Shown here in pieces: positions 8,924-22,440 of a DNA stretch of 64,000 nt; positions within the stretch are counted from its first letter, which is position 1; each line of letters starts with the position of its first letter. The notes under the pieces were generated by a model, which did no database searches, was not told where the DNA came from, and saw only the letters and a list, made by a program, of their open reading frames with translations. The stretch is from Moesziomyces globuligerus (taxonomy: Eukaryota; Basidiomycota; Ustilaginomycetes; Ustilaginales; Ustilaginaceae): the NCBI GenBank assembly GCA_030849465.1, contig JARVLF010000019.1, positions 124,001-188,000 on the forward strand. The letters run 5' to 3'. A program made the position numbers and the translations under genes.

Positions 8924-11900
8924 ATGGCTCCCGCACCCACCGCCGCCGGTGTTCCCGCCACCGTCCCCGCCAAGTCCGTCAAGGGCTCGGCTGGTGCCGC
9001 TGCCAAGAGCGGCGCCGCCGCCGAGAAGAAGGAGGCCAGCGCCGAGAACGACGCCCTCCTCTCCGGCGACAAGGACGCTGCCCAGGAGCTCACCAACCTC
9101 GTCAAGATCGAGGGTCCCGCCGCTCTCGCCAACCTCGGCATCGAGAACGTCATCCTCAAGGGCCTCAACGACAAGAAGAACGCTGCCGGCCGCGAGGGCG
9201 CCTGCGCTCTCCTTTCCAACCTCTGCGAGCAGGGCGTCGGTCACGAGGTCGAGCCCTTCATCTTCGACAAGCTCATCACCCCCCTCGTCGAGGCCATGGG
9301 CGACAAGGAGAAGGCCGTCCAGAAGGCTTCCCTCGACGCCCTCAAGGCTTTCGTCCAGGTCATGTCCCCCTGGGCCGCTCCCCAGCTCCTCAAGGTCGTC
9401 CTCGAGCAGGCCCGCTCCGCCGGCAAGTGGCAGGTCAAGACCGGCTGCATCACCCTCCTCGAGGAGATGGTCACCGCCTGCCCCGAGCGCATCGCCGCCC
9501 TCATGCCCGAGATCATCCCCGTCCTCTCCGAGGTCATCTGGGACACCAAGTCCGACGTCCAGAAGGCCTCGCGCGCCTCGCTCACCAAGCTCTGCGCCCT
9601 CATCTCCAACAAGGACATCGAGCGCTTCATCCCCGCTCTCATCAACTCGCTCATCCACCCCGTCGAGGAGGTCCCCAAGACCATCCAGCTCCTCTCGGCC
9701 ACCACCTTCGTCCAGGAAGTCGACAGCGCCACCCTCGCACTCATGGTGCCCCTCCTCTCCCGCGGTCTCAACGAGCGCCCCACCGCCACCAAGCGCAAGG
9801 TCGCCGTCATCATTGACAACATGACCAAGCTCGTCGACAACGAGCGCACCGTCCGCCCCTTCCTCGGCAAGCTCCTTCCCGGCCTGATCAAGATCGAGTC
9901 CACCCTCGCCGACCCCGAGGCTCGTGGCGTCGTCCAGCGTGCCATCAAGACCCTCCGCGAGGTCGGCAACGTCACCGGCGACGGCTCCGACGTCAAGCCC
10001 CTCGAGGACGTCAGCGTCCAGGCATCGCTCGAGCAGGTCAACAAGGCCCTCGGCGAGCAGAGCCTCCAGGCCCAGTCCAACCTCGCCGCCTACGTCGCCG
10101 CCCTGGTCGCCAACCTCTCCAACGCCCGCAACTTCGAGCTCACCGAGTGGGAGAGCGCCCTGATCCCTTACCTCACCCTCATCAAGGGCTCCAAGCCTGA
10201 GCAGGCCAAGGCCGTCTGCAAGACGCTCCTCACCGCTCTCGCCAAGTCCACCGGCGACTCGGTCGAGATCTTCGAAGACGAGGAGGAGGGTGAGGACCTC
10301 TGCAACTGCCAGTTCTCGCTCGCCTACGGCGCCAAGATCCTCCTCAACACCGCCACCCTTCGTCTCAAGCGTGGTCACAAGTACGGCCTCTGCGGCCGCA
10401 ACGGTTCCGGCAAGTCGACGCTCATGCGCGCCATCACCAACGGTCAGGTCGAGGGCTTCCCCTCGCCCGACGAGGTCCGCACCTGGTACGTCGAGCACGA
10501 CCTCGACGGCTCCGAGGGTCTCATGACCGTCCTCGAGTTTATCCTTGCCGACCAGCGCCTCAGCATGACCCGCGAGGAGGCCGTCTCGACCCTCCACGAG
10601 GTCGGCTTCGACGATGCTCGTCAGAACTCGCCCATCGCCGGTCTCTCCGGTGGTTGGAAGATGAAGGTCGCCCTCGCCCGTGCCATCCTCTTCAAGGCCG
10701 ACATTCTCCTCCTCGACGAGCCCACCAACCACTTGGACGTCGTCAACGTCAAGTGGATCACCGACTACCTCGTCAACCTCAAGACCGCCACCGCCATCAT
10801 CGTCTCGCACGACTCCAAGTTCCTCAACGACGTCTGCACCGACATCCTCCACCTCAACCGCTTCAAGATCAAGCGATACCCGGGTAACCTCGACGCCTTT
10901 GTCAAGCGTGTCCCCGAGGCGCGTGCTTACGCCGAGCTCAACACCGGCGAGGACTACTCGTTCAAGCTCCCCGACCCTCCTCTGCTGGACGGTGTCAAGA
11001 CCAAGGAGAAGTCGCTCATCAAGATGAAGGACGTCATCTTCCAGTACCCCGGCACCCCCGCCCCCCAGCTCAAGGGTGTCAGCATCCAGATCTCGCTCGC
11101 CTCGCGTGTCGCCATCCTCGGCCCCAACGGTTCCGGCAAGTCGACGCTCGTCAAGCTCGTCGTCGGTGACACCGAGCCCGGCTCCGGTGAGATGTGGAAG
11201 CACCCCAACTTGGTCATCGGCTACGTCGCACAGCACGCCTTCCACCACATCGACCAGCACCTCGACAAGACGCCTCTCGACTACATGCTCTGGCGTTACC
11301 AGACCGGTGAGGATCTTGAGGAGCACATGAAGTCCAACCGCGTCCTCACCGAGGAGGAGCAGGCCGCCATGAAGCAGGGCGAGGTCTACGTCCACGAGGG
11401 CGTCAAGCGCATCATCGACGAGATCGTCGCGCGTAAGAAGCTCAAGAACTCGTTCCAGTACGAGGTTTCGTTCAAGAACATGTCATCCGCCGACAACATT
11501 TGGATCCCAAGGGACGAACTCCTCAAGAGAGGCTTTGAGAAAAAGGTGATGGCCTTCGACAGCAAGGAGGCTCAGCGTCTCGGCATGAACCGTCCCCTCG
11601 TCCGCAAGGAGATCGAGAACCATTTCGAGGACTTCGGCCTTGAGCGCGAGTTCACCTCGCACAACACCATGCGCGGTCTCTCTGGTGGTCAGAAGGTCAA
11701 GGTCGTGCTCGCCGCCGCCACCTGGCGCCGCCCTCACGTCATCATCCTCGACGAGCCTACCAACTTCTTGGACCGCGAGTCCCTCGCCGCCCTCATCAAG
11801 GCCATCGAGTCCTTCCAGGGCGGTGTCGCCATCATCACCCACTCCAGGGAGTTCTCCGAAGGCACCTGCAAGGAGATCTGGGCCATGGACGATGGCGTCC

Positions 11901-12127
11901 TCGTCGCTTCCGGCCACGACTGGACCGAGTCCAACTCCAAGGGCACCAAGCTCGAGACCAAGGAGGACGACGACGACTTCATCGTGGACGCCTTGGGAAA
12001 CAAGGTTGCCAAGCCCAAGAAGGCCAAGAAGGAGAGCGCCTCGGACAAGCGTAAAGCTCGAAAGGCGCGTGCGACCGCGAAGAAGAACGGCACCTACAAT
12101 TCGGAGGACGAGCTCGAGGATCTCTAA
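8924..12127 (+). CDS. TEF3: Translation elongation factor 3 (eEF3), ABC-F-type ATPase
   Basis: A 1067-residue fungal elongation factor 3, which binds the ribosome and helps release E-site tRNA. Order: Ala-rich N-terminus, HEAT-repeat region (about 50-380), four-helix linker, ABC1 with Walker A GRNGSGKS (Gly491-Ser498) and signature LSGGWKMK, ABC2 with GPNGSGKS (Gly733-Ser740), the chromodomain-like insertion (about 830-880), signature LSGGQKVK, and Walker B VIILDEPTNFLD. The C-terminus is Lys-rich and ends in an acidic SEDELEDL. Codon use is extremely biased to C-ending codons and AAG, as for a very highly expressed gene, except in a patch at 11462-11560 and in the last 34 codons. The last 34 codons are repeated 5.8 kb downstream at 17831-17932. 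Confidence 0.98.
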   Translation: MAPAPTAAGVPATVPAKSVKGSAGAAAKSGAAAEKKEASAENDALLSGDKDAAQELTNLVKIEGPAALANLGIENVILKGLNDKKNAAGREGACALLSNLCEQGVGHEVEPFIFDKLITPLVEAMGDKEKAVQKASLDALKAFVQVMSPWAAPQLLKVVLEQARSAGKWQVKTGCITLLEEMVTACPERIAALMPEIIPVLSEVIWDTKSDVQKASRASLTKLCALISNKDIERFIPALINSLIHPVEEVPKTIQLLSATTFVQEVDSATLALMVPLLSRGLNERPTATKRKVAVIIDNMTKLVDNERTVRPFLGKLLPGLIKIESTLADPEARGVVQRAIKTLREVGNVTGDGSDVKPLEDVSVQASLEQVNKALGEQSLQAQSNLAAYVAALVANLSNARNFELTEWESALIPYLTLIKGSKPEQAKAVCKTLLTALAKSTGDSVEIFEDEEEGEDLCNCQFSLAYGAKILLNTATLRLKRGHKYGLCGRNGSGKSTLMRAITNGQVEGFPSPDEVRTWYVEHDLDGSEGLMTVLEFILADQRLSMTREEAVSTLHEVGFDDARQNSPIAGLSGGWKMKVALARAILFKADILLLDEPTNHLDVVNVKWITDYLVNLKTATAIIVSHDSKFLNDVCTDILHLNRFKIKRYPGNLDAFVKRVPEARAYAELNTGEDYSFKLPDPPLLDGVKTKEKSLIKMKDVIFQYPGTPAPQLKGVSIQISLASRVAILGPNGSGKSTLVKLVVGDTEPGSGEMWKHPNLVIGYVAQHAFHHIDQHLDKTPLDYMLWRYQTGEDLEEHMKSNRVLTEEEQAAMKQGEVYVHEGVKRIIDEIVARKKLKNSFQYEVSFKNMSSADNIWIPRDELLKRGFEKKVMAFDSKEAQRLGMNRPLVRKEIENHFEDFGLEREFTSHNTMRGLSGGQKVKVVLAAATWRRPHVIILDEPTNFLDRESLAALIKAIESFQGGVAIITHSREFSEGTCKEIWAMDDGVLVASGHDWTESNSKGTKLETKEDDDDFIVDALGNKVAKPKKAKKESASDKRKARKARATAKKNGTYNSEDELEDL

Positions 12128-12854
12128 GCCGTCGTAGACGGTAGCGACGGTCCCAGCCTCGTTCCCTTCTCCCTTCTCCCTTCTCCCTTCTTCCTTCTCC
12201 CTTCACCTGTTTCTTCTTTTGATTGGCCTGAATCGCTCTTCGCTTCTGTTCGTGGTCCAATTCCAATTCCAACTCCTCTTCTCCCATGTGAACGTGTCGA
12301 TTGCTTTGATCGCGTTGACCGCGTTGATGCCGATGACACTAAATGGCAGTCCGGCTGCTCGCTCGCAGCCATCAAACAACGCGCAACACGCAAGAGGAGT
12401 CGGCGTGACTATTTTTTGGCGTTACAACTTTCTGACATGGTTCATTTTTTCGGATAGGATGGTACTAATGTGTTTTGTGTACTACCGACGCGTGTGTGTG
12501 TGAGCGTGAGCGCGTGAATGTGAGACTGTGCAAGGATTACGTAAGGAAGAGTAAGCGATACGGATCGGGTCATTGGGGGCAGGATCGGATTATCGAATTT
12601 TTGTCTTTCGCCAATCTAACAAAGTCTCTGAGTGTCTTCTGTGTGGAGTATTCTGGAAGTGGGTCTGCGTGCGTTGCAGCATCTGAATCAACCTCTGTGT
12701 GCGCTACGCACCAGGCGAATGATAGCTGAGCTCGCAGCATCCCAGGGTGCGCAAAGGGCGACTCAGCCTTCGCATCCCACCACGACGCTCCTCATCTTCT
12801 TGCCCATCCTCTTGCCCATCCTCATCCCCATCGGCCCCCAATGATCAAGCGGCC
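12128..12854. other. eEF3 3' region and leader of NTPase-nuclease gene A
   Basis: A CTCCCTT-type heptamer is repeated several times at 12162-12203, just after the eEF3 stop. From about 12390 to 12640 the DNA is AT-richer than its surroundings. No ORF is supported except a six-codon upstream ORF next to gene A. Confidence 0.6.
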
Positions 12855-12858
12855 ATGA
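12841..12858 (+). promoter_or_regulatory. Five-residue uORF overlapping the start of gene A
   Basis: ATG at 12841 opens a frame of five sense codons (MIKRP) ending in TGA at 12856-12858. Its stop overlaps the in-frame ATG of the large gene at 12855 as ATGA. Such an overlap could allow termination-reinitiation or reduce translation of gene A, if the transcript starts upstream of 12841. Confidence 0.4.
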
Positions 12859-13490
12859 CAGCTGCCGGGACGTTCAGGTACGATCTCCGGGCTCTCCTGC
12901 GACAAGGAGTCGACTCCTCCACTTTGACAGCCCCAGACGATGCTCGCGACGCGCGGTGCGAGGACTTTGCTGTCGAGCTCTACGAAGCCCGTAAGCTAGG
13001 CACGCTTAACTATGACCTGGTGCTCCGCGCCTGCGCGCTGCTTCAGCACTGGTCGCCTCCTCCTCCGTCCTCGGATCCTCACACGCCGCCGCGTCCATCC
13101 CACGGCCCGCTTCCGCTCCTCCATTCGCCCACGCCCCAGCGCGCCACCGAGCTCGCGGTCAAGGCAGCTCAAAGTCTGGGACAAACAGCCTGGTCCGCTC
13201 TGATTCGTGCCGTCCAAGGCGTGAGAGTCGCTCACCACGCTGATGATGCCACCGCTCTCGAAACCTACCTCCTCACCCTCCTCTACCGCCTCAAGGGAAG
13301 CCGAACCCTCCTCGCAGCCCAGTTCCACCAGCTTGCAGACGCCGACTTGTCCGATAACCAGTGGCCGTACTACATTCCTCTGCTTCGAGACCTCTTTGCA
13401 AGGGTACTCGCCTGGCATCCCCGACCCGACGACGACCAGGTGATGGGCTACGTCCTCGCCAAGTTCCCATATTCGCGTCACCGGATCGCT

Positions 13491-13521
<31 letters not shown>

Positions 13522-15899
13522 GTGAAGCCGATCAGGATCTCAAGCACCACCTTCAGGACGCCATCCGAAGCGCCTACCGCGGCGACGCCCATCACCGCCT
13601 CCTCCGCTTCACCATCATGGTCAACCGCTCCTTCGCAAGCTCACCCAACAAAGTTGCGCCCTACTACAAGGGCACCCCCGTCGTCCAGTCCAGCGGCACA
13701 GGCAAGACCCGCCTCGTCCTCCAGCTCGGCAACATCGCCCCGCTCCTCTTTGTCTGCATCCGCCCGGCCGGCTCCGGCGTCGATGAGGGCTACCCTCTCG
13801 CCGACGACGCCGTCGTGAGCTTCCTCCTCTCCGATCCCGTCTATAAACACCTCGACGGCAACACCAAGGCGGCCGCCATCCTCGCCGGCTGGTTCGAGAC
13901 CCTCGCCCTCGACCTCGCCCAAGAGGACGACGTCGAAGCAAAGCATCGCCTCCTCCTCGACCTCAACGCCTACGGCACGCCCGGCCACGAGCAGAGGCGC
14001 AGCGCCTTCTTCCAACGCGTCGCCGACAGGGCAAAGCAAGTGGCCATGGAGTCACCTGCTGGCGCAAAGCACGACGTCGTGCTCCCCAGCGCCCTCGACG
14101 GGCCCGTCGCAGATCTGAGCTGCCAGCTCAAACCTGTGCAGCTCTACCTTGCCGCCAAGGCCAACAAGACTGAGGGCGACGCCGAGCTCCACGACGACGA
14201 CCCGCCGCACATCTACGTCGCCATCGACGAGTGCGTCAACCTCGGACCCAAACTCCTCGAGTGCTTCCGTCGCGCCTGGAACCACATCGGCACGCTCGAA
14301 GCGCGCAACGGCGCCGTCTGGTGGCTCCTCCTCACCAGCACCAGCAGCAGAGCCGCCAGCCCCATCCGCCCCTCTCGAGATGCTTCGTCGCTGCGCGAGG
14401 TGGGCATCCCTTCGATGCCCACCTTCTTCGCCGTCGGATTCGACACGCTGCGCGCCCAACAGCCGCGCCTGCAGCGCGCCATCGACGCCACCGAGCACGG
14501 CTACGTGGCCTTATTCGGACGTCCCCTGTGGTCCTCGTTGATCCATCGCTCCTTTTGGGCCACGGCGATGACCAAGCTGATCGGCGCCGAGGAGTTCCTC
14601 ACGGGCAACGTCGACATGAGCTTTAGCATTCTCGGCTCGCGCCTCGCGCTGCGCTTCGTGCCCACGCGCAGCGTCAGCAACGAGGTTCTTCTCCGGCAAG
14701 TCGCCTTTGCACACAAGGCGGTCGACCGTCACATGCGTCTCCTCACCGCGATCGAGTCCGACGCCGCGCTCCACATCAGCTCGCCCTCAGAGCCGGTGCT
14801 TGCCATCGCAGCCGCACTCTCCATGCTGCCCACCGCCGCCGAACGAGCAAAGGATGAGTCTGCGTACGAAAAGGCCAAGAATCGATACGGCTCCATCCTC
14901 GAGACGCTCCGACGCATGTGCTCCACCAGCCAGACCATCGACCTTATCAAGGGCACCCGCGGCGAGCTCGTTGCGCGGCTGCTCTGGATGACTGCCTCGG
15001 ATGCGGCCCTTGTCGCCCAACTCGACCTCACCCGCGAGCCCAGCCTGGACGTACGCGCTCGTCACCTCTTGCAGCCCGTCGCGGTCGACGTGCTCCTCGC
15101 CAGCCTTGTCCAGCTCGGCGCCGACGACCAGGCGCAAGTCCAGCGGCGCATCGACGAGGTCTGCCACTGCATCTCTGCCTCGGGCGATGCCGCGGGTGCC
15201 AAGGTGCGCGCCTGGACTCACTTTTCGCATTTCGACATTCTCGAGGTGGCCATCGACGAGATCTCGCCCCACTACCTGTGGTACTGCTGGAAGCGCGGCG
15301 TGGCCGTCCAGCTGGCGCACCAGCAGCACGGCATCGACGGCCTCATCCCCGTCTTTGTCGGCGATCTGCAGCAGCCGTTTGGATCGGCGGCGGCAGGCAG
15401 CCATGCCGACGAGGCCGAGGCGGCGCGCCACATGACCTACATTGCATGGGAGGCCAAGAACCGCAGCAAGACGTACGCTGCGCTCGCGCAGAGAGCCGCG
15501 GCCAAGGACAAACACGCCGGGCCCGCCATCCGGCGCCTCGCCGGCGGCGTGGGCGTGGACGTGGGCGTGGGCGACGAGCCGCTGACCCAACGCAGCCTCT
15601 TGACCGTGCTGGCCGATGTGGGAGCTGCGTGCGCCGAGACAAACGTGGCGCCGATCGGCGCGACGGGCGCGCTGCAGGTCTGGATCCGCGGCGTGGAGGA
15701 TGCGCACGTCTATCCGTGCCTCGACCAGCTCGACATCCGCGACGTCGTTGTCAACTTTACCACCCAGATCGCACAGCGCATCGAGTACGGGCCGGAAAAC
15801 ACGCTGCCCAACCCTATGGCGCTCGACCAGGCCGAGCTCCAGCCCGACGCCGACGCCCAGGAGCTCAGCCAGTCGCTTGAGGCGATGAACGAGGACTGA
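12855..15899 (+). CDS. P-loop NTPase fused to probable PD-(D/E)XK nuclease (paralogue A)
   Basis: A 1014-residue intronless protein. No named fungal gene is recognised. The start is the first in-frame ATG. Residues 1-200 are helical. A P-loop VVQSSGTGKTR (Gly281-Thr285) is followed by strand PLLFVCIRP, then a Walker B YVAIDEC (Asp458-Glu459) and a strand ending in LLLTSTSSR that may be a sensor. Near the C-terminus, WYCWKRGVAVQ leads to HGIDGLIPVF (Asp828) and YIAWEAKNR (Glu866-x-Lys868), which fits the D...E-x-K core of PD-(D/E)XK nucleases. NTPase-nuclease fusions of this general type are known among mobile-element-derived and Crinkler-like effector families; membership is not proven here. 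It lies on the same strand as eEF3, 728 bp behind it, and is homologous end to end with the protein at 18568-21645. Confidence 0.75.
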
Positions 15900-16062
15900 A
15901 TGAGTTTGTGTGGGAGGGGGCCCAGGGGGGTGGGGGCATTGGGGGTTGTCTGGTGCACTTACTTTGCACCCATCATGAATACGCATTCTTGTTTGCATTT
16001 GGCCCCATCATCTGTGTTTGCTGCCTCATTGCCTGTCCCCACCTTGACTTGTTTGGCGCCCG
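15900..16062. other. Short spacer between gene A and transporter remnant
   Basis: The spacer is G-rich just after the gene A stop and then unremarkable. None of the three missing C-terminal membrane segments of the neighbouring transporter is found here on the minus strand. Confidence 0.6.
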
Positions 16063-17345
16063 TCAGCCGCAGGCTGGACATTGAGGTGATCCTTCTACTT
16101 GTTCAAGCGATGCAAGGGCAAGGCGAGTGAGCAAGGAACTGGAAGCAAGGCTGAGCAAGTGAGCAAGGTTTGAAGCAGGGCGGCATTGGGAAGAGGCATC
16201 CATGCGGAGCAGGTACCTGCCCGTGCGGTCCAGCACACCGAGCATGCAAGCGAAGAAGACCACTGCAATCGACGATGCGGCCGCAAAGTGGAACACTCGC
16301 TCCTTGCGGAAATCAGACGAGAAGCAGAAAGCCAGGATCGCCACCAGTGCGACCGCGTAGATCGGCGCGGTCATGTACTGAACGTGGAAGTCCTTGTAGC
16401 CCATCGACTTGACGAGTTCGGGCACAAAGTACTGGATCGTCTGACTACCGGTCGAAAGCATGTAGAGCACGACGAAGCACCACGTGCGCCAGTCGCAGAA
16501 GGCCATCTTGGCAGCCTGAGTGTGGGTGATGTGCTCGTCGCCTCCCTGAGCGCTTCCGACCGAGTCGAGGGCAAGGCGCCTGGCGGCAAGGTGCCTTTTG
16601 CGGGGAGTAAGCCATTTGGTAGTGGTGGGGAAAACGGGGAGGACAAAGACGGAGGCGATGGCGACATCACAGGTTGCAGCACCCTCGATGATGAAGAGCC
16701 ACTTCCAGGCGGCGATGCCGTGAGCACCGTCCAGCTTCTGCAGCAGGCCACCGGCGATGAGACCACCGAAGATGCCCGAGATGGCAACGGCAGAGTAGTA
16801 GAGAGCGTATTGTCGGGCCAACTTGCCGCGCTTGTACCAGCTGGACAGGAGGAAGAGCACGCCCGGGCAAAGCCGGCCTCGAGGGCGCCGAGGACGACAC
16901 GGAGGGCAGCAATGGTCTGCCGGTTCTTGGCGGCGGCAAAGCCGATGGACAGACCACCCCAGAGGAACATGAGCGTGGGCAGGTAGATACTGGGCCGGAC
17001 TCGGGTCAGGAGCATGTTACTGGGCACCTCGAAGACGACGTAGGTGGCGAAGAAGACGAGGAGGACGATGCTGTAGTGGTTCGAATCCATGTTGAGGTCC
17101 TTGCCCATGCCTCCAGTGTAGGCGTTACCGATGTTGCTGCGGTTGAGGTAAGAGAAGAGGTACATGAGCCAGACGCAAGGGACGAGGCGCCTGTCAATCT
17201 TGCGCAGGAGTGCCTTCTCCTTGGCCTCGGCCTCAGCGATAGAGATGGTGGCGTTCGCATCATCGATGGCGAGGGATGGAGGGCGCATGGCAGCGTCGTA
17301 GGTGTCGTGAGCGACGGCGTTGTTCTTCTCGGCAGCCGAAACCAT
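16063..17345 (-). pseudogene. Broken MFS transporter of the anion:cation symporter (allantoate permease-like) type
   Basis: The ATG at 17345 opens a frame (MVSAAEKNN) with RRLVPCVWLMYLFSYLNRSN, the typical first membrane segment of Dal5-like symporters, and continues to GALEAGFA. There one base is missing from a C run (plus-strand GGG at 16865-16867). Restoring the length would join the frame to LFLLSSWYKRGKLARQYALYY in the next frame. About nine membrane segments are visible over the two frames. Similarity ends at VLDRTGRYLL (near 16207), and the last three segments are absent: the frame runs into unrelated sequence to a stop at 16063. With both a frameshift and a missing 3' end, a functional transporter is unlikely. 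The frameshift alone could be a sequencing error, but the 3' truncation could not. Confidence 0.8.
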
Positions 17346-17830
17346 GGTCAGGGGACAAAGGCCTATAGCCTGGCGGAAACGTGGGTGGCTGTGTTGTTGT
17401 GGCAAGGATGTGCCTGGTGGGGATGCGGATGGGAGCAAGGAGGGATGAAGTAGCGTTGCCGAGGATCTTGCGATGGGATGGAGATGTCAAAGGATACTCG
17501 GAAAGCAGGAGTACTTATGTGGATCAGGCGGGCGCGATGGTATGGTTCAAGCGGAGGACTCGTTCACGCGTGAGGTCATGACCTGGGAAGTGCAGGTAGG
17601 CGCATGAACGACGATGGGCTGAGACGTGCTAGGCAAGTGTAGTCTCAGGGACGCCCGTCGGTCGACGCGGTTGATCGTAGAGATGGGGGGAAGACCAGTG
17701 CAACGACACTGTTCCTGAACGTGTGGCACAAAGCGGGGATGCGACGATGCGGAGGAGGCGGAACTGACGCTCCGAAGGGGCTGCGTGTGGGGTGTGGCAG
17801 TCGTGTGCTACGCAAGGGATGCGAGTTGCG
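17346..17830. other. Former promoter side of the transporter remnant
   Basis: No gene is supported. This 485-bp stretch separates the transporter start from the displaced eEF3 tail. It contains no recognisable eEF3 sequence 5' of 17831. Confidence 0.55.
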
Positions 17831-17932
17831 GCCAAGAAGGAGAGCGCTTCGGACAAGCGCAAGGCCCGAAAGGCGCGCGCGAACGCCAAGAAGAAGGGCA
17901 CCCACAAGTCGGAGGACGAGCTTGAGGACCTT
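17831..17932 (+). pseudogene. Second copy of the last 34 codons of eEF3, without its stop codon
   Basis: Codon for codon this matches 12023-12124 of the eEF3 gene: 13 of 102 bases differ, 9 silently; the four changed residues are Thr/Asn, Asn/Lys, Tyr/His and Asn/Lys. It encodes AKKESASDKRK through SEDELEDL. The eEF3 stop TAA is TCA here (17933-17935), and weak similarity seems to go on for about 25 bases. An ATG at 17819 happens to be in frame and opens a 74-residue ORF to 18043, but nothing suggests that this is a gene. Direct orientation relative to eEF3 and the absence of any upstream eEF3 sequence show that it is an isolated tail fragment. Confidence 0.92.
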
Positions 17933-17935
17933 TCA

Positions 17936-18567
17936 GCTCGTACGATGGTAGCAAACGGCGGTGGCTCAGCTTGTCGACCCTCTCTCCTTTGCTTCTGCCT
18001 TGCCCTCCTTTGCCCTCTTTTTCTTCTGCTTTCATCGGGCTGAACTGCTCTGCCCTTCCAGTATCCACCTGTTAGCTCGCCGCTTCTCCCCTTCCCTCTT
18101 CCAATCCAATGTCTCTTTCACCTCCGTCTTTGCGCATGCGATGTGCGGTGTTGCAAGTCGTGAACGCCGACACGATGCGGTCTTGTCGTCGAACCTTTTA
18201 CCACATGTCGTATTCAGCTGATACGGTTCTGTACATTGTGAATGTGATTCGTGCTTGAAATGCTTTACGCGTCCATGCTGGCGTTTTGAATCAGCGGCTG
18301 CCACGGTATGTTGAAGCCTCAGTAGTTGAAGTGTAGCAACGCTGGCAGATTCTCCTGGCGAGCATTGAGATTTGACGCGCTGAGAGTCGGACAAGCCTTT
18401 CAGCGCTCCTCCTGACAAAGTCTTCCTTTGGCGGCGCTTTGCCAGCCTAGCAACCGTGAATTTGCCTGTTGACAGTCTGACAGCTGCGTCAATTGACCAT
18501 CAGATCGAAAGACTGCACCACGTTGAGCTGAATTTCAAGACGAGCAATCTGGCACTACTGTGCGGAG
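17936..18567. other. Spacer between displaced eEF3 tail and paralogue B
   Basis: The first 150 bases are pyrimidine-rich (TTTGCCCTC, CTTCTGC) and vaguely resemble an eEF3-type 3' UTR. The remainder is AT-richer and has no supported ORF. It includes the likely 3' UTR of paralogue B. Confidence 0.5.
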
Positions 18568-21500
18568 CTATTCGATCTCCATTCCATCGCCGCGCGACGA
18601 GGCAGTTGGGCCCGGTACCGCGTCCGGCTGCAAAGCCGAGGCGAAGGGCTCTCGCTCCTCGTCGTCCAGCGCCAAGTCGAGATCCATGGGGTCCGGCATC
18701 TGGTTCGATGTGTCGTAGCTCTTGTGAGCCGCCACGGTCCGCAGGAAAGTTGCCATGATGGGCCGGATCCGCAACGCATCCAGGCAAGGGTAGCTGCCCT
18801 CGAGGCCGCGGATCCAGAGCTGAGTAGAGTCGGTCTCCTTGATCGGTCGGAGCCGGGCGGAGCCCTCCTTGGCGCCCATATCGGCCAGCAAAGTGAGCAT
18901 GCCGTGCTTGGTGAGTGCAGGTTGGCCCGCGTACCGGCAATTTCGCTCGTGCCGAAGCTCGGGACCGGCATGCGCCGGCTTGTTGGCCGCATCGTCCGCC
19001 CGAGACTGCGACGTGGTTGCGCGATTCTTGGCCTCCCAGGCCACGTAGGTCATCTGCCTACTCGCCGGCGCCTCACCCTCGTCGCCACCAAACTCCTGTG
19101 AGAGGTCGCCCACAAAGACGGGCAGGATGCCATCGATGCCGTGTTGCGGATGCGCCATCTGGATGGCCACGCCGCGCTTCCAGCAGTACCAGAGGTACTC
19201 GGGAGAAATCTGCTCCACCTGCACCTTGAGCAGGTCGAAATGCGTAAAGTGCGTCCACGCCTGGACCTCAGCTCCTGGCGGCGATCGACTCGCAATCACA
19301 TTGCACACCGCTCGGATCCGTTCATGCACCGTATGCTTGCCTTGTTCGTCGAGCTGGACGAGCCCTGCGAGGATGTCGTCCAGCGCCACCGGCTTGGCGA
19401 GGTGCTCGGCGCAGCGGTTGTAGTTTGCGTCGGGCGCATTGACGAGCTTGGCAGCGTCCCATGCGGTCATGAGCAGCATGCGCGCCAGCAGCTCGCCGCG
19501 AATGCCTTTGAGCACGTCGACATCCGCCGAAGGCAGGCACATGTCCTTGAACGTCTTGAGGATCGAGCCGTATCGGTCGCTTGAGATCTGGCGGGGCGCG
19601 TCCATGCCTTCGGGCTCCCCATCGGCGCTGCCCATCATGATGAGCGAGGCGGCGATGGCCAGCACGGGTTCGGAGGGCGAGCAGATGTGCATCACGGCAT
19701 CGCTATCGACGCGATGGAGGATGCGCATGTGGCGATCCACAGCGTCGCGCGCAAACGTGGCCTGCTGGCCAAAGAGGACGCCGTCTGTGCTGCGCGTGGG
19801 CATGTACTGCAGCGCGAGACGCGAGGCGAGCATGTTGAAGCACATGCGACGATTGGCACGCTCAAAGGGTTCGCCGCCCAGCAGCTTGAAAATCGCCGTG
19901 TACCAGAAGCGTTCACGCAAGAGCGACGTCCAGAGCGGCCGGCCGTAGTACTGGTAGTGCTCGAGCTGGGCGACATGGCTCGCACTGCGGAGCGGGGCAA
20001 GCTCGACGCGAAGGACGTCAAAGCCTACGCCAACAAAGGTGGGCAGAGGCACGGCGTTTGGATAGCGGGTCGACGTCTGCTCGGACTGGGGGCGGACGAG
20101 GGTGGAGGCGCTGCTGTTGGTGCTGAGGAGAAGGAGCCAGAAGCAGACGAGCGGGTCCTTGTCGAGAAGGTGTTTGCCAGCGGCTTGGCCGTGGGTTTGG
20201 GCACCTTGACGTAGTCTGCGTTCGCTGTCCTCAAGCTCGGTGATCCAAGCCCAGGCGCGGCAGATGCCGTTGAACAAGGGGCGGCCGAGCTGAACGCATT
20301 CGTCGATGGCGACGAAGAAAGGCACGTCCCTGGCTAACGCTCGTCCGTGCGACTCGAGGTGGACGTGCACCTGGCGGATCTGCCGACTGAGGCGGCGGAC
20401 GGGGGCTTCGAGGTGTTGGAGGAAGATGGCGTCCGATTCTCCCGTCACGGGCTCAAGCAGCAAGGCGACGCAAGCCTTGGCCTCGACGTCGAGGAAGAAA
20501 TGCTTGCGCACGCTTTCGTGCTGCTCGTTGCCAAAGCCATTGAGCTGCTTGAGCTTTTCACATTTGGCCTCGGCGTCGGCGAGCGGTTCGAGCGTGTCGG
20601 CGAGCGTGCTGAACCAGGTGGCGAGCAGGAGGGCGGCCTTGTGGTCCTCGGAGCCCGTGTAAGAGGCGAAGCGTCGGACAAGATCGGTGAAGGGCTTGTC
20701 GCCTAAGGGGTAGCCGTGGCGGGCCGACGTGGTGTCAGGACGCATGCAGACGAAGAGGAGCGGCGTCATTTGGCCGAGTTGGTGGACCATGCGGGTCTTA
20801 CCGGTGCCGCTGGATTGGACGATGCTGGTGCCCTTGTAGTAAGGGCGGCGTTCTTCCGGAGCGTTGTGAAAGAAGTGGGCGTGTGTGCTCGAGACAAAGT
20901 CGAGCAAACGACGGTGCGCATCGCCCTGGTAGGTGTGCTGGAAGCTCTTGGCCAGATGCCGGCGGAGAGGGTCTTCGGAGGGTACCGAGTCCTCTTCTGG
21001 CGCTACGAGTGGGAGGCGGGCGATGACGTAGCACAGTTGGACGTCGTTGTTGAGTTGCGTGGGTTTGGCGAGCATTTCGTCCACGGCCTGGCGAATTGGT
21101 GTGAAGAGTTCGCTGCGCTGCGCCGGGTCGGCAGAGAGGGCGCGAAGGTGAGGAAAATGGGGCACCAGGGCCCATTTTTCCTGGTACAGGAAGAAGAGGA
21201 GTGCGCCGATACGTAGCCGGACTGTCCGCTCGGCCTCGCCAACCGTGATGCTGCGGATGACATCCGAGTAGATCGTTGAGACATCTGCCAACAGCAATCC
21301 GAGGGTACCGGAGAGGCGAGCTGCAAGCCGCATAGCCTCATTGGAACGAGGCGAGATTTCGATGCTGGAAGGCGAAGAGGAGGAGTGGGATGCAAGAGTG
21401 GGCGTGAATGGCGAGGAAGGTAGGATGCGCTCGAGGGCGGTGATGGAACGAGCCAGGACGTCGAGGGCGGGTGGACGTTGGAGATTGGCGCCGAGCAGGT

Positions 21501-21645
21501 TGACGATGGTGCTGAGCGTCTCTGTGACGAGCGGATCATAGGCAGGATGGCGCGCCGATTGCGCCACAGCGTGTGCGCGCATTAGGGGCGCCAGAACCTC
21601 TCGCTCGATGGCAGAGGACGTGTCGGCGTCGCGGGGCGAAGTCAT
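18568..21645 (-). CDS. P-loop NTPase fused to probable PD-(D/E)XK nuclease (paralogue B)
   Basis: A 1025-residue intronless protein, homologous over its whole length to the protein at 12855-15899 but in opposite orientation. The first ATG (MTSPRDADTSS) is taken as the start. Key motifs fall at nearly the same positions: IVQSSGTGKTR (Gly280-Thr284), PLLFVCMRP, FVAIDEC (Asp448-Glu449), SSPSEPVLAIAA, WYCWKRGVAIQ, HGIDGILPVF (Asp838), YVAWEAKNR (Glu871-x-Lys873). Shared blocks look 50-60 percent identical by eye, with weaker N-termini. This suggests an old duplication or two separate arrivals, with both frames kept intact. The putative role is NTP-driven DNA binding or cleavage; host defence, effector and selfish-element roles are all possible. 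No signal peptide is evident. Confidence 0.75.
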   Translation of the reverse strand: MTSPRDADTSSAIEREVLAPLMRAHAVAQSARHPAYDPLVTETLSTIVNLLGANLQRPPALDVLARSITALERILPSSPFTPTLASHSSSSPSSIEISPRSNEAMRLAARLSGTLGLLLADVSTIYSDVIRSITVGEAERTVRLRIGALLFFLYQEKWALVPHFPHLRALSADPAQRSELFTPIRQAVDEMLAKPTQLNNDVQLCYVIARLPLVAPEEDSVPSEDPLRRHLAKSFQHTYQGDAHRRLLDFVSSTHAHFFHNAPEERRPYYKGTSIVQSSGTGKTRMVHQLGQMTPLLFVCMRPDTTSARHGYPLGDKPFTDLVRRFASYTGSEDHKAALLLATWFSTLADTLEPLADAEAKCEKLKQLNGFGNEQHESVRKHFFLDVEAKACVALLLEPVTGESDAIFLQHLEAPVRRLSRQIRQVHVHLESHGRALARDVPFFVAIDECVQLGRPLFNGICRAWAWITELEDSERRLRQGAQTHGQAAGKHLLDKDPLVCFWLLLLSTNSSASTLVRPQSEQTSTRYPNAVPLPTFVGVGFDVLRVELAPLRSASHVAQLEHYQYYGRPLWTSLLRERFWYTAIFKLLGGEPFERANRRMCFNMLASRLALQYMPTRSTDGVLFGQQATFARDAVDRHMRILHRVDSDAVMHICSPSEPVLAIAASLIMMGSADGEPEGMDAPRQISSDRYGSILKTFKDMCLPSADVDVLKGIRGELLARMLLMTAWDAAKLVNAPDANYNRCAEHLAKPVALDDILAGLVQLDEQGKHTVHERIRAVCNVIASRSPPGAEVQAWTHFTHFDLLKVQVEQISPEYLWYCWKRGVAIQMAHPQHGIDGILPVFVGDLSQEFGGDEGEAPASRQMTYVAWEAKNRATTSQSRADDAANKPAHAGPELRHERNCRYAGQPALTKHGMLTLLADMGAKEGSARLRPIKETDSTQLWIRGLEGSYPCLDALRIRPIMATFLRTVAAHKSYDTSNQMPDPMDLDLALDDEEREPFASALQPDAVPGPTASSRGDGMEIE

Positions 21646-21775
21646 AGTGTCACGGGCGAGGCGGGAGCGAAGCCCGATAGCGCGGTGAGAGTGCGATCGA
21701 GTGCATGCACAGGCTGCAGAGACGGCACGGTCAAGTGAATTGCGGTGCGTGCAGAACGATGGTGGAGCTCGATGG

Positions 21776-21825
21776 ATGGATGGATGCTGGATGGATGGAT
21801 GCTGGATGGATGGATGCTGGATGGA
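21776..21825. repeat. 15-bp minisatellite, three copies
   Basis: The unit ATGGATGGATGCTGG is repeated three times without mismatch, then followed by a partial copy. It lies about 130 bp upstream of the start of paralogue B. Confidence 0.9.
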
Positions 21826-22440
21826 TCAACAAGTCGGGCTCAGCGAGGCGGAACTCAGCATTCTTGGATTTTTGGTTCGCTGAGCGCGCACCGACATGCA
21901 AGGCAACCTCCTCCACACGCGGTGAAATGTCGACCAGGCCAACAGAAGCGAGGACAGCGAGTGGGAGCTGCGATGATTTGTTAGACCATCGAAATGTCAC
22001 AGCATCTGAGCCCGCGCGTGCGGTGCGCGCCCCGCGGTCGGCCACCGTGGGTGGTTGACAGTTGGCGCTAGACGGCGCTTGCTCGGCTATCAAGACTGCC
22101 TTTACGGTTTGCGGGGTACAGTAGAGCGCGGGCATCGCCTCACCAACACGAGAGCCAGCCGGGTCCAACGCAGCTGTCATCGCCGGGCTGAGCAGGGTGG
22201 CCCAAGCAACCCGAGCCATCCAAGAGACCGCGGATCTTGGCAGCCATACGAGTCGGTTGTGGATGCGCCCACTCGATGACTTCGTGCAGGGCCGCCCGGC
22301 CGGACCACACGCGAGCTCAACGGACCTCGCCCGGCCCATTTACGCCTGCGCACGCCTGCACACGCCTGCACACGCCTCGGCCCGCGGTATGCTTTGGTGG
22401 CTCGCCCGCGCCTTGACCACCGAGTGTGGCTGGCCATCCG

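What the first reader, a model, noticed from the sequence alone, without database searches (positions are those of the whole stretch)
12023..17932. Direct repeat of the eEF3 tail brackets an NTPase-nuclease gene: possible homing-type element inserted at the 3' end of an essential gene
Seen: the last 34 codons of eEF3 occur twice in the same orientation, 5.8 kb apart. The first copy ends the intact eEF3 gene. The second has no upstream eEF3 sequence and no stop. Between them lie NTPase-PD-(D/E)XK gene A and a broken transporter. Known: some mobile elements insert near the end of a conserved gene, bring a replacement 3' end so that the host gene stays functional, and displace the old tail downstream; this has been described for mitochondrial homing elements, and PD-(D/E)XK homing nucleases exist. 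Inference: gene A or its ancestor may encode the nuclease of a nuclear element that targets eEF3. The alternative is a partial tandem duplication of the eEF3 end followed by gene capture.
Basis: partly seen in the sequence, partly recalled or inferred. Interest (0 to 1): 0.92.

Follow-up and report, generated by a model that had tools for sequence, protein, structure and literature searches.

The report
eEF3 tail duplicated at recombination junction
A second copy of the end of an essential translation gene sits 5.8 kb downstream in a smut-like fungus, and its sharp edge is best explained by a chance join to a broken transporter-gene copy at a short matching sequence, not by a homing nuclease.

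Summary
108 bp from the end of eEF3 (12022-12129) recur at 17830-17937 at 87% identity without gaps. Homology continues about 120 bp into the 3'UTR. A search of the own genome finds only these two copies.

The homing reading is not supported. DNA left of the orphan tail (16208-17829) is an inverted, truncated 89% copy of a transporter promoter and gene on contig C6. Just past the junction, C6 matches eEF3 at 18 of 21 bp, and within eEF3 only where the repeat begins. That explains the breakpoint without a nuclease. At 4 of 4 other gene A family loci, no repeat pair straddles the family gene. The near-identical gene A copy on C10 carries no eEF3 tail.

The tails differ mainly at synonymous sites (9 synonymous, 4 amino-acid, plus stop loss). 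A tail neutral since birth is disfavoured (P 0-0.036). So the orphan tail probably belonged to a working eEF3 until fairly recently.

Most likely this is a microhomology-mediated join between two diverged eEF3-bearing chromosome copies. Which tail is native cannot be decided without DNA from relatives.

The parts
8924..12127 (+). eEF3 (elongation factor 3), intact 1067-aa gene; last 34 codons are tail copy 1
   Evidence: ORF, Pfam HEAT_EF3/ABC_tran, 92.6% aa identity to Moesziomyces antarcticus eEF3
12022..12246 (+). tail copy 1: last 34 codons, stop and start of 3'UTR
12855..15899 (+). gene A: 1014-aa protein of a smut gene family with P-loop and GID...WEAK motif (putative NTPase plus PD-(D/E)XK-like nuclease)
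   Evidence: translation; 37 relatives; motif conservation; no Pfam hit
16208..17829 (-). truncated, frame-broken copy of an MFS transporter (promoter plus about 379 of 502 codons; start codon at 17345), related to C6:1487828-1489447
   Evidence: 89% DNA identity over 1645 columns; ends and frames; Pfam MFS_1 on both ORF pieces
17830..18058 (+). orphan tail copy 2: 34 eEF3 codons without stop, plus start of 3'UTR
17820..17845 (.). junction between MFS upstream DNA and the eEF3 tail; the C6 counterpart matches eEF3 18/21 just past it
18568..21645 (-). gene B: 1025-aa member of the same family as gene A, opposite strand, closest in this genome to the C3 copy (63% aa)
   Evidence: translation

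Best explanation
The doubled tail is a scar of illegitimate recombination. DNA upstream of an MFS transporter copy (lying inverted behind eEF3 and gene A) was joined to codon 1034 of an eEF3 gene at a short imperfect match, leaving that eEF3's last 34 codons, 3'UTR and downstream neighbour (gene B) behind the join. Shown: the repeat, the identity of the DNA left of it, and the match at the junction as seen in the C6 relative. Inferred: that the two tails came from two working, diverged eEF3 copies (two lineages or haplotypes of the chromosome), so that one unequal, microhomology-mediated crossover or one-sided insertion made the arrangement; the orphan tail then began to decay (stop lost). Gene A is probably a passenger.
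For: The clear MFS homology runs up to the orphan tail. The C6 sequence past the junction matches eEF3 18/21; 0 of 3000 random window 30-mers and 2 of 4000 C6 30-mers do as well; in the eEF3 CDS the match occurs only at the breakpoint. Tails: 9 synonymous against 4 amino-acid changes plus stop loss; dS 0.59, dN 0.05; neutral since birth gives P 0-0.036 over ten settings, while both tails under constraint (omega 0.2) gives P 0.17-0.35 in four. MFS copy: dS 0.22, dN 0.035; neutral since birth gives 0 of 254 simulated runs with as few amino-acid changes, over four settings; of 27 amino-acid differences 15 are derived in the window copy, 7 in C6, 5 unclear. So pieces that had evolved as working genes were joined or broken late.
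Against: No DNA from relatives, so the two-lineage origin is not shown. The tail test rests on 14 differences and assumes equal rates on both branches; an orphan tail neutral for half its branch is not rejected (P 0.08-0.11). The MFS copy could have been a working paralog at this locus, in which case the join may be old and the tail test alone carries the claim of recent orphaning. The MFS and tail dS values differ (0.22 and 0.59), though the tail value rests on 22 sites. The junction match is read from C6, a relative of the fragment; the fragment's own lost sequence is unknown.
Confidence: 0.5

Rival explanations
1. Short-fragment (filler) duplication: during break repair between genes A and B, a copy of the eEF3 end and the transporter fragment were pasted in; the tail copy was never functional there.
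For: Two truncated gene pieces lie side by side and meet at microhomology, typical of template switching (recalled).
Against: Both pieces show synonymous-biased divergence that a fragment neutral from birth should not have: tail P 0-0.036, MFS 0 of 254 runs.
Confidence: 0.22
2. Relic of a second full eEF3 gene: an old tandem eEF3 copy lost all but its last 34 codons by deletion between MFS upstream DNA and codon 1034.
For: Explains the coding constraint of tail 2 and the microhomology junction.
Against: Needs a long-lived second working eEF3; the tail search found no further trace in this genome. Whether relatives carry two eEF3 genes was not tested.
Confidence: 0.15
3. Homing-type nuclear element: gene A (or its ancestor) cuts near the end of eEF3 and carries a replacement tail.
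For: Same general layout as mitochondrial gene hybrids (passages of PMC3630166; of PMC4466345). Gene A keeps P-loop and GID...WEAK motifs. Tail 1, the attached one, has fewer preferred codons than expected, 21 of 34 against 28.4, while codons 1015-1033 just upstream are near normal, 15 of 19 against 16.2; only 8 of 999 windows in the eEF3 body are as low, and that dip is larger than in 5 of 5 sense-frame control genes.
Against: The orphan tail abuts a transporter fragment, not gene A; the breakpoint is explained by an 18/21 match; at 4 of 4 other family loci no repeat pair straddles the family gene; the C10 copy of gene A has no eEF3 tail; no direct or inverted match longer than 4-5 bp between the first and last 40 bp of the block. 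A foreign attached tail would fit the best explanation equally well.
Confidence: 0.07
4. Assembly artefact joining two haplotypes or two species.
For: Two diverged tails at one place is what a haplotype misjoin looks like; no reads were available.
Against: The orphan tail has lost its stop, which an allele of a working eEF3 would not be expected to do; the exact shared stretch at the junction is only 10 bp.
Confidence: 0.06

Closest known systems
Mitochondrial gene hybrids made by mobile endonuclease ORFs (Allomyces atp6; Glomus atp6, atp9, cox2, nad3; also proposed for mtDNA genes of the smut S. scitamineum)
   Same: Attached tail, then an ORF with a (putative) nuclease, then a displaced tail; in Glomus atp6 the tails are 63.5% alike in DNA but 91% in protein (passages of PMC3630166; of PMC4466345)
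   Different: Nuclear; a 1.6-kb truncated transporter fragment lies between gene A and the displaced tail; junction explained by microhomology; no recurrence at the 4 other family loci examined
Microhomology-mediated rearrangements (end joining, template switching, unequal crossover)
   Same: Sharp breakpoint at a short imperfect match, truncated gene pieces side by side
   Different: The pieces look diverged as working genes before the join, which suggests two lineages rather than a local copy
Crinkler/RHS-type (CR) NTPase-nuclease proteins
   Same: P-loop NTPase motif with a C-terminal PD-(D/E)XK-like motif, several copies per genome, one next to repeats at a contig end; NTPase plus REase architecture described in passages of PMC5289972
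   Different: No Pfam Crinkler or RHS match among 32 members scanned; membership not shown

Membership tests
Homing-type tail-replacement element | Nuclease gene lies directly between replacement tail and displaced tail as one unit | tested here: not met
   16208-17829 is a truncated copy of the C6 MFS locus
Homing-type tail-replacement element | Attached tail is foreign, displaced tail is native | tested here: inconclusive
   Preferred codons: tail 1 21/34 (P 0.0007 against the body), tail 2 25/34 (P 0.053), a hint for it; protein tails do not separate; no relatives' DNA
Homing-type tail-replacement element | Same nuclease family beside other duplicated gene ends | tested here: not met
   BLASTN self-comparison of 4 other family loci (C10, C3, C9, C13; 16-22 kb each): no repeat pair straddles the family gene
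Homing-type tail-replacement element | Occupied and empty alleles with a precise site | not testable with these tools
   No related genomes are held for this one (note)
Homing-type tail-replacement element | Active site-specific nuclease | not testable with these tools
   Motifs only; structure prediction switched off
CR (Crinkler-RHS) NTPase-REase proteins | P-loop NTPase plus PD-(D/E)XK motif | tested here: met
   In 32 aligned members: GTGK positions 28-29 of the 29 with a residue there, D458 32 of 32, D828 30 of 32, E866 27 of 32, K868 29 of 32; a motif reading, fold not tested
CR (Crinkler-RHS) NTPase-REase proteins | Match to a curated family model | tested here: not met
   Pfam at E up to 1: 15 families, each matched by one member of 32, none Crinkler or RHS
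Microhomology-mediated junction | Short shared sequence at the breakpoint | tested here: met
   18/21 match, 0 of 3000 window and 2 of 4000 C6 controls as good

The most novel reading that the evidence does not exclude
A nuclear counterpart of the mitochondrial tail-replacing elements: family genes A and B both landed in the 3' flank of eEF3 in two lineages, and a cross between those lineages left an essential gene with a replacement tail and another tail stranded behind it.
Probability: 0.07. Interest if true: 0.85.

Novelty: new variant of a known kind. Interest (0 to 1): 0.38.

Why it matters
If the two-lineage reading is right, the locus is a scar of exchange between diverged smut lineages inside an essential gene, and shows how a layout that looks like homing can arise from a short chance match. 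If it were homing, it would be a nuclear element of a kind that the listings (10 of 11 papers shown; 10 of 31 shown) did not name.

Tried and rejected
Extending the repeat upstream of 12022/17830: rejected (local score reached by 688 of 2000 shuffles and 1120 of 2000 window segments; anchored extension zero).

Extending beyond 12250/18060: 6 tests (2 stretches, 3 scorings); as good or better were 21-218 of 300 shuffles and 5-213 of 300 window segments; the most lenient scoring comes closest (5 of 300 windows, 21 of 300 shuffles), so a faint continuation is possible but not accepted.

Tandem duplication of the whole 5.8-kb block: gene B, not gene A, follows the orphan tail, in opposite orientation and closer to the C3 copy.

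Using eEF3 proteins to decide which tail is native: the tree groups this genome with Moesziomyces at 65% support, with neighbouring nodes at 41 and 47; residues 1015-1033 are closest to Melanopsichium (14 of 19), the tail closest to Kalmanozyma (27 of 34), but both tails here are of that type.

Codon preference as a sign of a foreign tail: not explained by site conservation. In one search the script took the longest frame of each of 11 loci; only five are sense frames by length and strand (L044, L045, L050, L052, L053). Two of the five dip at the end (L045 21 of 33 against 0.78 in the body; L053 25 of 34 against 0.89), by 0.14-0.15; three do not. Tail 1 dips by 0.23, tail 2 by 0.12. A second low patch at codons 841-885 is as low (8 of 999 windows).

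Protein search with the transporter used a 230-aa piece, so the length filter excluded full-length relatives and gave only partial outgroups; some positions were polarised with one to three residues.

Alignment A1 held both window genes and 30 of the 37 relatives. Pfam at E up to 1 and the PDB profile search gave no credible relative.

First MFS simulation used a threshold of 29 from a path-averaged count; repeated with the matching count of 32. At half-neutral branch length one search gives 0, 0, 10 and 0 runs of 82, 85, 99 and 77 with as few changes.
Full report
OBSERVATION. The window comes from an 18.5-Mb genome in 24 contigs; eEF3 is 92.6% identical to that of Moesziomyces antarcticus and 92.4% to Melanopsichium, so the organism belongs to, or is close to, the smut family Ustilaginaceae; it is not named. 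The intact eEF3 gene is 8924-12127. Its last 108 bp recur at 17830-17937 (87%, no gaps) and similarity runs on to about 12246/18058, significant in the UTR part and not reliably beyond. These are the only two matches found in the genome. The second copy lacks detectable eEF3 sequence upstream and has TCA in place of TAA.

WHAT LIES BETWEEN AND AROUND. Gene A (12855-15899, +) and gene B (18568-21645, -) belong to one family. A protein search with gene A lists 37 relatives (only the 7996 candidates sharing most words were scored); 21 carry an organism name, 20 of them smuts and one a plant entry, Cichorium endivia. In the own genome a search with gene A gives 8 matches at 6 loci: A, B, C10 (two pieces), C3, C9 and C13. 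Motifs in 32 aligned members (both window genes and 30 of the 37 relatives): P-loop QSSGTGK[TS]R, a VAxDEC strand, and GID...WEAK resembling PD-(D/E)XK; the names NTPase and nuclease rest on these motifs alone. The C10 copy lies just inside repeats at a contig end and is almost identical to gene A over 14374-15853, about 95% over the 720 columns before, and 40-88% per 60-column block further up, a sign of recent ectopic exchange; the homology ends with the gene and includes no eEF3 tail.

THE KEY RESULT. C6 carries an intact MFS gene (open frame of 510 codons, 502 from the first ATG); the window copy has the promoter and about 379 codons, lacks the rest, and has one frame break. Clear homology reaches to the orphan tail. 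In C6, the DNA just past that point reads AAGGCAAGGAAGGAGAGCTCC; eEF3 at the breakpoint reads AAGGCCAAGAAGGAGAGCGCC: 18 of 21 match, which is why BLAST runs some bases into the tail. No random 30-mer of the window (0 of 3000) and 2 of 4000 from C6 match as well, and nowhere else in the eEF3 CDS does. The place where the repeat begins is therefore most simply set by a short shared sequence, and no cutting enzyme is needed to explain it. The match is read from C6, a relative of the fragment; the fragment's own lost sequence is unknown.

WHEN AND FROM WHAT. Between the tails there are 9 synonymous and 4 amino-acid differences plus the lost stop. If the orphan tail had been free of constraint since it arose, 9-11 changes of the second kind would be expected; 5 or fewer arise with P 0-0.036 in ten settings (8, 2). 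With both tails constrained (omega 0.2) P is 0.17-0.35. If the orphan tail was free for half of its branch, P is 0.08-0.11. The MFS pair tells the same story with more data: 49 synonymous and 32 other differences by the simple count, no in-frame stop in 377 codons; neutral since birth gives 0 of 254 runs with so few (66, 51, 64 and 73 runs); half-neutral gives 10 of 343. Of its 27 amino-acid differences, 15 are derived in the window copy, 7 in C6 and 5 unclear. Both pieces thus look like parts of working genes until a late stage. For an essential gene normally present once (recalled), the simplest source of a second working tail is a diverged homologous chromosome. One unequal join between a copy with eEF3, gene A and the MFS gene and a copy with eEF3 and gene B would make the whole arrangement. 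Potential for mating between species is reported for grass smuts (abstract of PMC3248468). This source is inference.

HOMING. The layout resembles mitochondrial gene hybrids, where an endonuclease ORF brings a replacement C-terminus (passages of PMC3630166; of PMC4466345, the latter on a smut mitochondrial genome). Against a nuclear case here: the fragment between gene A and the orphan tail, the microhomology, and the other family loci. In one search the self-comparisons show a tandem array beyond the gene on C10 (925789-929464; it includes a 270-aa ORF) and an inverted pair before it (920277-921965), short repeats on one side of the C3 gene (637946-640842), a palindrome inside the C9 gene, and nothing on C13: at 4 of 4 loci no pair straddles the family gene. 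The block ends share no direct or inverted match longer than 4-5 bp in 40 bp. For homing, or for any model in which the attached tail is foreign: tail 1 uses 21 of 34 preferred codons where 28.4 are expected, with the drop beginning near codon 1034 (codons 1015-1033 give 15 of 19 against 16.2). Two of five sense-frame control genes dip at their ends too, by less, and codons 841-885 of eEF3 are as low.

LITERATURE. One U. maydis gene of the family (um06505) is described near a chromosome end and missing from the matching P. antarctica scaffold (passage of PMC3933340), which fits an unstable family. The 2016 paper on Crinkler-RHS proteins was not held; it is known here only through passages of the review PMC5289972. 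The listings name no tail duplication of eEF3 in their titles or abstract openings; apart from the passages cited, only listings were seen.

VERDICT. A real and unusual scar, most likely of microhomology-mediated recombination between diverged eEF3 copies; the homing reading is unlikely but not excluded.

Noticed in passing
window 14374-15853 and G000:C10:923605-925084: Gene A and its frame-broken C10 copy near a contig end are nearly identical here, about 95% just upstream and much less further up: stepwise ectopic conversion or exchange.
   Followed up: partly
window 11444-11578: eEF3 codons about 841-885 (overlapping the Pfam chromodomain match) have a marked drop in codon preference, 27 of 42 against 36.1 expected, unexplained.
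   Followed up: partly
window 17819-18043: A 74-codon ORF starts at an ATG 12 bp before the orphan tail's first codon and reads through it in frame.
   Followed up: no
window 18306-18465: About 160 bp with 68% relatives at C19:79038-79198 and C15:690981-691141: a possible small dispersed repeat.
   Followed up: no
L011, G000:C10:920277-921965: ORF 920525-921571 lies between inverted repeats of about 157 bp (72%); looks like a DNA transposon next to the gene A copy, family not tested.
   Followed up: no
window 21773-21826: 15-bp tandem repeat TGGATGGATGGATGC just upstream of gene B.
   Followed up: no
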